NCBI GenBank assembly: GCA_913063265.1 | Contig: CAJXZG010000001.1 | Coordinates: 1-64,000 of the forward strand | Source: an uncultured Prolixibacteraceae bacterium | GTDB lineage: Bacteria; Bacteroidota; Bacteroidia; Bacteroidales; Prolixibacteraceae | Direction: 5' to 3' | Length of the DNA stretch: 64,000 nucleotides | Shown: positions 28,503 to 32,695 of the stretch, one piece after another | How the letters are laid out: each line of letters starts with the position of its first letter | How positions within the stretch are numbered: position 1 is the stretch's first letter | The notes under the pieces: model-generated | What the model saw: only the letters and a program-made list of their open reading frames with translations | Told to the model about the DNA's origin: nothing | Database searches by the model: none | Made by a program: the position numbers and the translations under genes

Positions 28503-28700
28503 ATTGAGTTTAAATTAAATTAAAAACGCAGTTATTAAAACCGCGGTTTTACAACTTTATTTAACTTCTTTATTCAAATATTGTTCGATTTGGTTCGAAA
28601 AATAGAACTCTGTAGTTATCTATATTCAGGGATTTTTTTTTACGAAATCCCTTATCTGTTTTAAAGAATTGTGATTTTATCTAAACTCATTCCAAATAAG

Positions 28701-28731
28701 TTTGTTGTTTAACAAAAAGCATTTATATTTG
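28701..28731 (+). promoter_or_regulatory. Consensus Bacteroidota promoter of the methionine operon
   Basis: TTTG at 28701-28704, then 19 bp, then TATATTTG at 28724-28731. This is a full match to TTTG-N19-TAnnTTTG. The predicted start of transcription, near 28737, is about 17 bases before the leader ORF. Confidence 0.8.
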
Positions 28732-28753
28732 GCACATACAAAATCGACAAGAA

Positions 28754-28867
28754 ATGAATTCAGTTTTGATACATAGCTTCAAAAATTCAGTTACTTCCGG
28801 TAATTGCTGTGTTTTCATGTTGTCGTCGATGTCTATGTGTATGCACAAGCCTTCTTTCTGTTGTTAA
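28754..28867 (+). CDS. Met/Cys-rich leader peptide of the methionine operon (candidate)
   Basis: A 37-codon ORF from ATG 28754 to TAA 28865-28867, lying between a consensus promoter and the aspartokinase gene (64 bases away). Its second half reads SGNCCVFMLSSMSMCMHKPS then FCC and stop. In total it has five Met, five Cys and eight Ser in 37 residues. Because the downstream genes make homoserine-derived sulfur amino acids, the simplest reading is a ribosome-stalling leader that senses Met or Cys supply. I see no classic terminator hairpin with a T-run after it; only a weak GAATGA/TCATTC pairing (28871-28876, 28911-28916). The mechanism might therefore be translational coupling or Rho-dependent. 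It could be a chance ORF, but composition and position argue against that. Confidence 0.65.
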   Translation: MNSVLIHSFKNSVTSGNCCVFMLSSMSMCMHKPSFCC

Positions 28868-28931
28868 TGGAATGAAGGCAATTATATTCTGAGCGTAACA
28901 CATTCATATATCATTCAAAAATATTTTTAGT

Positions 28932-30266
28932 ATGTCGGATCGTATAATTCGATTTGGTGGCAGTAATATCGGGAATTCTAATTCTGCTATAAATCTTGAC
29001 AATTTTTTAAGCCGGGAAAAAGGGAGAAAAATAATCGTAGTTTCAGCTATTCCTGAAATTCTTTTATGGATTGAAAAGCGGGTAGAATTGGTTTTTAAAG
29101 AGCACATTGTTGCTGCAAATTTGAATCAAAAACTAACTTCATTCTTTGAAGACAGAGTTGATGGCAAACCAACAACAGAATATTTTAGACTTGTTGAACA
29201 ACTTTTAAGTTTATTGCAGGGAATTGCATTAATAGGAGATTATTCCAAAGCTTTAAAAGACCAGGTTTTAAGTTTTAGCGAAAAACTTTCGGTTGAAATT
29301 TTAATAGCGGAGTGGAAAGTAAAGAATAAAAGTGTAGAATCTTTGTGGCCTGAGCAAATTGGATTAAGAGCTAATTCAGAGTATGGCAATGCAACACTTT
29401 TGGATGTCAATACAAATTTCCTGAATAGTCTTTCTGAAGGAGTTTATATTCTGCCTGGTTCATACGGAATTTCGGAGAAGGGTAAAACAGTTCGTTCCGG
29501 AATTACTGCAGCGGATTACACAGCAGCTTTTCTAACTTCTTCAATGGGAGTTGAGAAATTGGAATTATGGGGACTTGATAATTTTTTTCAAAAAGCTGAT
29601 CCTCAAATAGTTTCAAATCCTCCGGTAATAGAAAGATTAACTTATTCAGAAGCCAGTGAACTGGCCTACTTCGAACATTACTCTTTTCACCCGAGGACAG
29701 TAGAGCCTCTAGAGTTAAAACATATACCAATTCAGGTGTTAAATACATCAGACGACAAAGGAAAAATTGATACAACCATAAATACTGAAACTTACATCGA
29801 TGACAAAATTGTAAAAAGTGTTGCCTGTACTGATGATATTTCATTTTTAAAGCTGGATGGTCCGGGAGTAGGTTTAAAACCAGGTATTTTGGCAAAAATT
29901 ACCACGCAGTTAAATGATGCCGGAATTAATATCAAATCTGTAATTACTTCTCAAATTTCCATCAACATAATTTTAGAAAAGAACACGGGAGATAAAGCAT
30001 TAAAGATTGTCGAAAAACTTGGATTTAATACGGTAAAAGATATTCACTTAATTAAAGATGTTTCACTCATTGGGATAATAGGCCACGGTATGCAGCAGAA
30101 TTATGGTGTGTCGGCAAAAATATTTAGCGCGGTTGCTCAACATAAAATTAATGTGCTTTTAAGTGGCTCAGGAGCTTCCGACCTGGTAAGTTACCTGGTG
30201 GTTAACAGCAATGATAAAGAGAAAAGCGTCAGGGTAATCTATCAGGCTTTTTTCGGTTCATATTAA
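28932..30266 (+). CDS. Divergent aspartokinase with C-terminal ACT domains
   Basis: A 444-residue homologue of monofunctional aspartate kinase, which commits aspartate to Lys, Thr and Met. The kinase domain (1-290) keeps the order of motifs but in altered form. The nucleotide-binding K-F-G-G-T-S reads RFGGSNIGN. The usual G-R-G-G-S-D-Y-T-A reads SGITAADYTAAF. ELAYFEHYSFHPRTVEPL is well kept. Two ACT domains follow (about 300-440: GPGVGLKPGILAKITTQLND, then GIIGHGMQQNYGVSAKIF), the usual site of amino-acid feedback. It heads the met operon behind the leader ORF, so it is probably the methionine-responsive isozyme. The changes in the kinase motifs leave open a weak or regulatory-only protein. 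Confidence 0.8.
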   Translation: MSDRIIRFGGSNIGNSNSAINLDNFLSREKGRKIIVVSAIPEILLWIEKRVELVFKEHIVAANLNQKLTSFFEDRVDGKPTTEYFRLVEQLLSLLQGIALIGDYSKALKDQVLSFSEKLSVEILIAEWKVKNKSVESLWPEQIGLRANSEYGNATLLDVNTNFLNSLSEGVYILPGSYGISEKGKTVRSGITAADYTAAFLTSSMGVEKLELWGLDNFFQKADPQIVSNPPVIERLTYSEASELAYFEHYSFHPRTVEPLELKHIPIQVLNTSDDKGKIDTTINTETYIDDKIVKSVACTDDISFLKLDGPGVGLKPGILAKITTQLNDAGINIKSVITSQISINIILEKNTGDKALKIVEKLGFNTVKDIHLIKDVSLIGIIGHGMQQNYGVSAKIFSAVAQHKINVLLSGSGASDLVSYLVVNSNDKEKSVRVIYQAFFGSY

Positions 30267-30335: not shown

Positions 30336-31664
<1,329 letters not shown>

Positions 31665-31777: not shown

Positions 31778-32695
31778 ATGCCGTTAAAAATACCCGATAA
31801 GTTACCTGCCATTAAAATACTTCAAGAAGAGAATATTTTTGTAATGAATGAGTCAAGGGCAACTCATCAGGACATTCGTCCCTTAAAAATTATTATTCTT
31901 AACCTCATGCCTTTAAAAATTTCTACCGAGACTGATTTGTTGCGCTTGCTTTCAAATTCGCCTTTACAAATCGAAATTGATTTTATGAAAATTAAAGGAC
32001 ATACTCCTAAAAATACACCTTCGGAACATATGAGGGAGTTTTATCGTGAATTCGATCAGTTAAAGGAAATTAAGTACGATGGCATGATCATCACAGGTGC
32101 ACCGGTGGAGCAACTTCCTTTTGAAGAAGTGACATACTGGGATGAGATGAAACAAATAATGGACTGGGCTGAACATCACGTTACTTCATCTTTATACATT
32201 TGCTGGGCAGCGCAGGCAGCATTATTTCATTATTACGGAATACCTAAGTACCCCCTTGAAAAAAAAATGTTCGGAGTTTTTCCGCATAAAAATACTCATA
32301 AACAATTACCCATATTTCGTGGATTTGATGATATTTACCAAATTCCTCATTCACGTCATACAGAAGTCAGGGAAAAGGATATAAAAAAAATTAATGCACT
32401 TGAAATTATTTCCACTTCTAAAGAGGCAGGTGTTTCGATTGTTAAAGCTAAAAATGGCCGTCAGCTTTTTATAACAGGTCATTCAGAATATTCACGTCAT
32501 ACCCTGGATAGTGAGTATAAAAGAGACAAATCCAAAAATCTGCCTATTGAAATTCCTCTAAATTATTATCCTGACAATAATCCTGAAAATACTCCGGTAA
32601 TGAGCTGGAAATCAACTGCAAATTTGTTTTTCTCCAATTGGTTGAATTATTATGTATATCAGGAAACACCATACAATTTGGATGAGATTGAATAG
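31778..32695 (+). CDS. metA: Homoserine O-acetyltransferase, MetA family (acetyl-CoA type)
   Basis: A 305-residue MetA-fold enzyme that acylates homoserine. The catalytic Cys142 is in YICWAAQAALFHYYG, and the active-site His is in GHSEYSRHTLDSEY, together with HSRHTEV. MetA proteins are often called succinyltransferases. The residue that decides acyl-CoA choice is Gly111 in E. coli (succinyl) and Glu111 in acetyl-CoA-using enzymes such as that of Bacillus cereus. Here TGAPVEQLPFEEVTYW places Glu exactly at 111, predicting acetyl-CoA, which fits the adjacent metY. The start is ATG 31778; the frame extends to 31709, but that part is repeat-derived. Confidence 0.9.
   Translation: MPLKIPDKLPAIKILQEENIFVMNESRATHQDIRPLKIIILNLMPLKISTETDLLRLLSNSPLQIEIDFMKIKGHTPKNTPSEHMREFYREFDQLKEIKYDGMIITGAPVEQLPFEEVTYWDEMKQIMDWAEHHVTSSLYICWAAQAALFHYYGIPKYPLEKKMFGVFPHKNTHKQLPIFRGFDDIYQIPHSRHTEVREKDIKKINALEIISTSKEAGVSIVKAKNGRQLFITGHSEYSRHTLDSEYKRDKSKNLPIEIPLNYYPDNNPENTPVMSWKSTANLFFSNWLNYYVYQETPYNLDEIE

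What the first reader, a model, noticed from the sequence alone, without database searches (positions are those of the whole stretch)
28701..28931. Met/Cys-rich leader ORF controlling a methionine operon
A full consensus promoter is followed after about 22 bases by a 37-codon ORF. It holds five Met, five Cys and eight Ser, with the order SGNCC...MLSSMSMCMH...FCC just before its stop. It sits 64 bases before aspartokinase-metY-metA. Seen directly: ORF, composition, promoter, gene order. Known: amino-acid operons are often controlled by leader peptides rich in the sensed residue. Inferred: ribosome stalling at Met/Cys codons controls this operon. No intrinsic terminator hairpin is evident, so the mechanism would be non-classical (Rho or translation coupled). 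This may be a sulfur-amino-acid leader type not covered by standard attenuator models.
Basis: partly seen in the sequence, partly recalled or inferred. Interest (0 to 1): 0.85.

Follow-up and report, generated by a model that had tools for sequence, protein, structure and literature searches.

The report
Methionine leader gene before methionine operon
A tiny gene rich in methionine codons sits in front of a methionine-making operon and is conserved in related bacteria, sometimes right behind a known RNA switch for SAM, so it probably tells the cell whether methionine is short.

Summary
28754-28867 is a conserved leader ORF before aspartokinase-metY-metA, present at 67 of 70 aspartokinase loci read from related genomes. 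In 64 distinct peptides ATG codons number 273 in frame, 9 and 9 out of frame. The conserved core is M-x-M-[R/Q/L]-stop. The 'FCC' end is a local extension, and Cys is not enriched. It is not an intrinsic terminator.

The main result lies outside the window. In 46 of 70 SAM-I riboswitch loci read from the order, a short ORF starts 2-16 nt behind the aptamer. These ORFs hold 90 in-frame Met codons (shuffles 26.9 +/- 4.6), clustered near the end. Three leaders, from one genus, are poly-Cys. Another genus keeps the hairpin but has Thr/Ile codons. The window's own genome has a second such leader, behind its only detected SAM-I riboswitch, before a homocysteine-metH operon.

Most likely this is a ribosome-sensed Met leader. 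Its lineage probably lost a SAM-I riboswitch at this operon. How the signal reaches the operon is untested; Rho is a guess. My searches found no description in print.

The parts
28701..28731 (+). Promoter-like site: TTTG 28701-28704, 19 nt, TATATTTG 28724-28731
   Evidence: Sequence; TATATTTG is kept upstream of many relatives' leaders. The Bacteroidota consensus itself is recalled.
28754..28867 (+). Met leader ORF, 37 codons plus TAA
   Evidence: counterpart at 67 of 70 loci; frame test
28817..28843 (+). Met codons of the leader: ATG at 28817, 28829, 28835 and 28841
   Evidence: the Met two codons before the last one is kept in 61 of 64 distinct peptides
28847..28849 (+). AAG where 63 of 67 relatives have the UAG stop; its loss lengthens the window's peptide by KPSFCC
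28849..28879 (+). Conserved hairpin: outer helix 28849-28854 with 28874-28879 (GCCUUC/GAAGGC), inner helix 28856-28862 with 28866-28872
   Evidence: fold of the window; pair counts on 51 relatives
28932..30266 (+). Aspartokinase-type gene, first gene of the operon
30363..31664 (+). metY, O-acetylhomoserine/O-acetylserine sulfhydrylase
   Evidence: TIGR01326 above cut-off
31778..32695 (+). metA, homoserine O-acetyltransferase; start chosen at the internal ATG of the ORF listed from TTG 31709
   Evidence: NF047918 above cut-off, matching from residue 24 of that ORF

Best explanation
28754-28867 is a translated leader ORF that senses methionine supply through its Met codons and controls aspartokinase-metY-metA. 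When Met-tRNA is short, the ribosome dwells on the clustered Met codons beside the hairpin at 28849-28879; when it is plentiful, the ribosome runs on through the hairpin's 5' arm. That difference sets whether the operon is expressed, with starvation as the ON state. Shown by comparison: the conserved frame, the Met bias, the hairpin and the place before methionine operons. Inferred: translation, sensing of charged tRNA and the ON state. Guessed: the output step, for which I favour premature Rho-dependent termination, because no intrinsic terminator is seen and the untranslated spacer reaches several hundred bases in relatives of the order. In sister lineages and at a second operon of this genome a SAM-I riboswitch lies just before the leader's start codon, so leader translation would there be gated by SAM (inferred).
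For: Leader at 67 of 70 aspartokinase loci; ATG 273 in frame against 9 and 9, shuffles 53 +/- 7. Outer helix 99.0% paired, inner helix with both-sided changes at 5 of 6 pairs. A covariance model of leader plus hairpin gives one strong match in each of 71 of 148 genomes. SAM-I survey of the order: 46 of 70 loci have a short ORF 2-16 nt behind the aptamer, with 90 in-frame Met against 14 and 7, shuffles 26.9 +/- 4.6. Codon swaps: poly-Cys leaders L237, L255, L257, of which L255 and L257 precede metY; Thr/Ile-rich leaders L066-L068 with the family's hairpin. Second Met leader in the own genome before PF01837-NIL/Fer4-PRK04334-metH genes.
Against: No expression or ribosome data. The base after the last AUG is C in 65 of 66 leaders and the outer stem is nearly invariant in sequence, which codon sensing does not explain. 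The window's own hairpin is not significant (z -1.28). Two of five covariation measures are not clear of shuffles: both-sided pairs (23 of 500 reach the value) and pair types (88 of 500). Across the order the hairpin is not general: stems starting within 9 bases of the last AUG are as frequent as in shuffles (26 of 39 against 0.66), and only the exact position is over-represented (8 of 39 against 0.057). Later short ORFs in the same SAM-I loci also lean in frame (17, 9, 3 ATG in 24 ORFs). No competing helix that would make a switch was found.
Confidence: 0.7

Rival explanations
1. Nascent-peptide arrest: the peptide ending M-x-M-[R/Q]-stop itself halts the ribosome at the stop in response to free Met or SAM, as TnaC does with Trp (TnaC recalled and seen in an abstract listing).
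For: Fixed spacing in the family: Met at the second codon before the last Met in 61 of 64 peptides, and R or Q as last residue in 58 of 67.
Against: Elsewhere in the order Met positions vary, poly-Cys leaders occur and 21 of 46 stops are TAA; three relatives incl. the window end five or six codons later.
Confidence: 0.15
2. A structured RNA or protein-binding element in which the ORF is incidental.
For: Near-invariant AUGC-UAGCCUUC...GAAGGC after the coding part; C after the last AUG in 65 of 66.
Against: In-frame ATG bias 273 to 9 and 9; leaders of unrelated sequence with the same bias; codon swaps with the hairpin kept (L066-L068); no Rfam match at E up to 1.
Confidence: 0.09
3. Classical attenuation with an intrinsic terminator, as in Bacteroid-trp.
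For: Leader and codon bias look classical; Bacteroid-trp loci of the order have FWWWH leaders followed by a stem with a T run (by eye).
Against: No terminator-like site between leader and aspartokinase; no T run follows the hairpin in the loci listed (by eye).
Confidence: 0.04
4. A functional microprotein, for example one that binds metal or sulfur compounds.
For: Met and Cys side chains.
Against: Only the Met-rich end is kept and the N-terminal part varies; no NCBIfam match.
Confidence: 0.02

Closest known systems
Amino-acid leader-peptide attenuators (trp, his, thr type); in this phylum Bacteroid-trp, RF01692
   Same: Short ORF before a biosynthesis operon with codons for the pathway's amino acid; Bacteroid-trp loci L296-L298 have FWWWH leaders.
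   Different: Met codons; no intrinsic terminator, while L296-L298 have a stem with a T run; RF01692 has no match in the own genome.
Cys-codon leaders of Actinobacteria (PMC1262725; Canestrari 2020, seen only as a reference)
   Same: Sulfur amino-acid leader without an obvious terminator; Rho was suggested there too (passages). The poly-Cys leaders L237, L255, L257 look alike.
   Different: The window's leader is Met-biased, not Cys-biased, is followed by a conserved hairpin and lies in another phylum.
SAM-I riboswitch (S box), RF00162
   Same: Controls methionine genes; lies directly before the leader in sister lineages and at a second operon of this genome.
   Different: None at the window operon; here the ORF behind the riboswitch is a leader, not an enzyme gene.
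Tandem riboswitches on one methionine gene, such as SAM-I plus AdoCbl at Bacillus clausii metE (passage in PMC2258182)
   Same: Two signals on one methionine gene.
   Different: There two riboswitches act independently; here a riboswitch precedes a short ORF.

Membership tests
Amino-acid leader-peptide attenuator | Short ORF in the 5' leader of a biosynthesis operon | tested here: met
Amino-acid leader-peptide attenuator | Codons of the operon's product enriched in frame | tested here: met
   273 in frame against 9 and 9
Amino-acid leader-peptide attenuator (classical) | Intrinsic terminator before the first gene | tested here: not met
   none between leader and aspartokinase
Amino-acid leader-peptide attenuator (classical) | Mutually exclusive helices | tested here: inconclusive
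   no competitor of the hairpin in three consensus folds (21, 15 and 6 loci), though other helices are predicted inside the leader ORF
Amino-acid leader-peptide attenuator | Response to the charged tRNA | not testable with these tools
   needs experiment
Bacteroid-trp RF01692 | Match to the covariance model | tested here: not met
   no Rfam match in the window; none in G000
SAM-I riboswitch RF00162 | Aptamer match at the operon | tested here: not met
   met at another operon of the genome
Actinobacterial Cys leader | Run of Cys codons near the stop, conserved | tested here: not met
   the window's CC end is lineage-specific and Cys is not enriched
Arrest peptide (TnaC type) | Ligand-dependent arrest by the nascent chain | not testable with these tools
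   needs toeprinting

The most novel reading that the evidence does not exclude
A riboswitch-gated attenuator. In Bacteroidales, SAM-I controls translation of a Met-codon leader ORF (in some lineages with Cys or Thr/Ile codons), and the ribosome on that leader then controls the operon: an AND gate for low SAM and low charged tRNA. The window carries a branch that dropped the riboswitch at this operon and kept the leader.
Probability: 0.5. Interest if true: 0.85.

Novelty: new variant of a known kind. Interest (0 to 1): 0.74.

Why it matters
I know of no established methionine leader-peptide attenuator (recall). Ten searches listed none, in a library that lacks most subscription papers. If true, many bacteria of this order read methionine supply twice, as SAM by RNA and as Met codons by the ribosome, and a riboswitch can act on a tiny ORF instead of an enzyme gene. 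The natural codon swaps make direct tests easy, and many such leaders are probably unannotated.

Tried and rejected
Cys as a co-sensed residue: rejected for the family on composition. A Cys twelve codons before the last Met does recur in 27 of 64 peptides, but consensus folds place a helix in that part of the leader, so it may be an RNA feature.

The exact motif as a phylum-wide element: ATGNNNTAGCCTTC-gap-GAAGGC hit 5 of 395 genomes, against 3 hits of the reversed control in the rows shown; the 5 hits were not followed up. A shorter pattern gave 0 hits in the own genome, which is expected since the window lacks the UAG.

A switch helix: no conserved helix between the leader hairpin and the aspartokinase start was found in three alignments. 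A hairpin over the aspartokinase start is only mildly favoured (mean z -1.34 over 70 loci).

A general hairpin behind every leader of the order: not supported. Mean z behind the last Met or Cys codon is -1.05 against -0.36 in the leader body (44 leaders).

A rut-like composition of the spacers: C 0.180 against G 0.153 on average over 37 spacers, too weak to count.

Dropped before counts: three of 70 aspartokinase loci without the motif; three genomes with partial aspartokinase matches (G001, G016, G022), not fetched; 16 of 67 similar sequences removed before the alignment; 24 of 70 SAM-I loci outside the short-ORF class.

Full report
What is there. The 4 Met after the start exceed shuffles of this ORF (mean 0.84, P 0.004); the 5 Cys do not (mean 3.46, P 0.23).

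Conservation at this operon. I read 70 loci: 30 returned and 40 fetched down the list. Partial matches in G001, G016 and G022 were not read. metY follows in 66 of 70; the four without a match are L033 and L062, which are cut by short contigs (L062 has metA), and L042 and L070. 67 of 70 carry a short ORF with ATG-Cnn-TAGCCTTC or a variant of it, followed by GAAGGC or a variant. The three without the motif are L042, L069 and L070; L069 still has a Met-rich leader. There are 64 distinct peptides with 1916 codons after the start. They hold 273 Met in frame, 9 and 9 ATG in the other frames, shuffles 53 +/- 7, maximum 75 in 300 rounds. Cys is 84 against 113.6 +/- 9.1. The start was taken as the farthest ATG within 42 codons, so lengths are approximate, and many of these leaders are from related species.

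The core is M-x-M-[R/Q/L]-UAG. The window, L002 and L003 have AAG, CTG and CAG where the others have TAG, which adds five or six codons; the FCC end is part of this extension. In L054 the stop is a UGA one codon earlier, and one stem pair is changed on both sides.

Hairpin. On 51 sequences (of 67) the outer helix is 99.0% paired and nearly invariant in sequence. The inner one is 79.5% paired with both-sided changes at 5 of 6 pairs. The covariation score is 0.265 against 0.145 +/- 0.013 (0 of 500 shuffles; slid versions 0.051 to 0.165). Two other measures are less clear: both-sided pairs 6 against 4.3 (23 of 500 reach it) and further pair types 22 against 20.1 (88 of 500). Relatedness alone can raise such scores, and one row, L068, is misaligned. 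Six single folds gave z -1.28 (window), -3.30, -3.32, -2.06, -2.43 and -4.09. The stem starts at the ninth base counted from the A of the last AUG, so five bases lie between. This is near the spacing at which downstream stems make ribosomes pause (recalled). The base after the last AUG is C in 65 of 66 leaders although the codon varies; I cannot explain that by codon sensing.

One copy per genome. Covariance model R1, trained on 51 of these sequences, hits 71 of 148 genomes at E up to 1.1e-4, once each, all in the window's own family by the tool's kinship column. In three of them (G050, G067, G041) it stands before metY-metA. Among 80 named aspartokinase loci, 45 match at E up to 0.017, each on the gene's strand upstream of it and all titled as Bacteroidota groups. 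The other 35, several from other phyla, do not match. Some of the 80 are the same genomes as. Titles and equal contig lengths suggest that the family is Prolixibacteraceae and that G023, of the window's genus, is Draconibacterium (inferred).

The SAM-I link. Rfam finds SAM-I in 22 of 31 sources chosen from sister lineages and unusual loci. In ten of the eleven the script listed a short Met-containing ORF starting some 11-17 nt behind the aptamer (L133 was not looked at; for L117 I count from an internal ATG). L056 and L060 (Prolixibacter type) and L066-L068 carry SAM-I, the leader and the family's hairpin. By contrast 0 of 20 other family loci, the window's included, have SAM-I. L070 has SAM-I but no evident Met leader, and L119, L121, L122 and L127 have SAM-I with short ORFs that are not clearly Met-rich. 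The own genome shows one SAM-I riboswitch, on contig C49 (strict filters, genome about 94% complete). 13 nt behind it begins MNKHQKLFLVSYLHGANMCMHKRY; the counterpart in G036 ends GANMCMRERL. By eye a stem GCGG...CCGC starts at the ninth base from the last AUG in both. The genes behind it match PF01837 (homocysteine biosynthesis), NIL/Fer4, PRK04334-type models below cut-off, and metH above cut-off.

Survey not selected on Met. SAM-I was searched in 295 genomes of the order (101 rows). I read 70 rows: the 30 returned as loci and 40 further ones down the list. In 46 the first ATG lies 2-16 nt behind the aptamer and opens a 10-60 aa ORF. In 6 a large ORF starts within 20 nt (they look like metH by eye). 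18 are neither. The 46 ORFs hold 90 in-frame Met in 1426 codons against 14 and 7, shuffles 26.9 +/- 4.6, maximum 42 of 500. Cys is 73 against 59.4 +/- 6.5, within the shuffles. 31 of 46 have at least 2 Met or 3 Cys in the last 10 residues. After collapsing similar sequences 27 remain with 51, 12 and 6 ATG by frame, and 17 of 27 have 2 Met near the end. Controls: later short ORFs in the same loci give 17, 9 and 3 ATG, so they too lean in frame, but only 1 of 24 has 2 Met in the last 10. In 50 loci of a phylum sample (30 best and 20 picked across families from a capped list) 4 qualify and none has 2 Met in the last 10. By P1 type in the order: A+T-rich P1, leader in 45 of 57; other P1, 1 of 13.

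Hairpins in the order. Several leaders end AUG-Cnn-UAG with a stem of different sequence starting at that G, for example L184, L202, L253, L268 and L273. It is not general: stems starting within nine bases are as common as in shuffles (26 of 39 against 0.66), and the exact place is over-represented (8 of 39 against 0.057).

Codon swaps. L255 and L257 end CCCFCCC and stand before metY. L237 ends in seven Cys; its downstream ORF matched nothing. All three come from two genomes of one genus. L066-L068, one genus, read MITNNNTIRTNTSML, MITIYYITRTNTSML and MITMTTITRTSISML with the family's hairpin and SAM-I. Thr and Ile also derive from the aspartokinase pathway (recalled).

Mechanism. Shown: a conserved, Met-biased leader ORF with a hairpin beside its Met codons, before methionine operons, and behind SAM-I in sister lineages. 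Inferred: translation, stalling on Met codons, ON under starvation, SAM-I acting on the leader's start codon (where large ORFs start instead in 6 loci). Guessed: Rho as output. For it: no terminator and spacers up to 435 nt in the order. Not for it: only 64 nt in the window, and weak C over G.

Literature. Ten searches listed no Met leader peptide in Bacteroidota; what I saw there are listings. I read passages of PMC7366714 (B. thetaiotaomicron; 5' UTR sORFs reminiscent of leader peptides), PMC2258182, PMC2864571, PMC9094748, PMC13236596 and PMC1262725. A term search in PMC10219788 gave nothing. PMC8764745 is not held.

Noticed in passing
G000:C49 (own genome, outside the window), locus L159: SAM-I riboswitch, then a second Met leader ORF, then PF01837, NIL/Fer4, PRK04334-type and metH genes.
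   Followed up: partly
L066-L068, upstream of aspartokinase: Leader with Thr/Ile-rich codons that keeps the hairpin and SAM-I, as if the sensed amino acid had been swapped.
   Followed up: partly
L237, L255, L257: Leaders ending in seven Cys or CCCFCCC behind SAM-I, in two genomes of one genus.
   Followed up: partly
L176-L205 and L236-L275: SAM-I in this order falls into two kinds by P1: A+T-rich P1 with an ORF start close behind, and another kind with the gene farther off.
   Followed up: partly
G046, many places on C1: About a dozen near-equal weak 75-nt matches (about 19.9 bits) to model R1 across the chromosome; looks like a repeat family.
   Followed up: no
window 28932-28970: Weak hairpin just behind the aspartokinase start codon, mildly favoured over 70 loci (mean z -1.34).
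   Followed up: partly
window 28628-28652: Terminator-like stem with a T-rich tail on the + strand, upstream of the leader's promoter-like site, where I saw no + strand gene end.
   Followed up: no
L001-L033 alignment, inside the leader ORF: Consensus fold predicts further helices, one pairing the leader's start region with the stretch before the Met codons.
   Followed up: no
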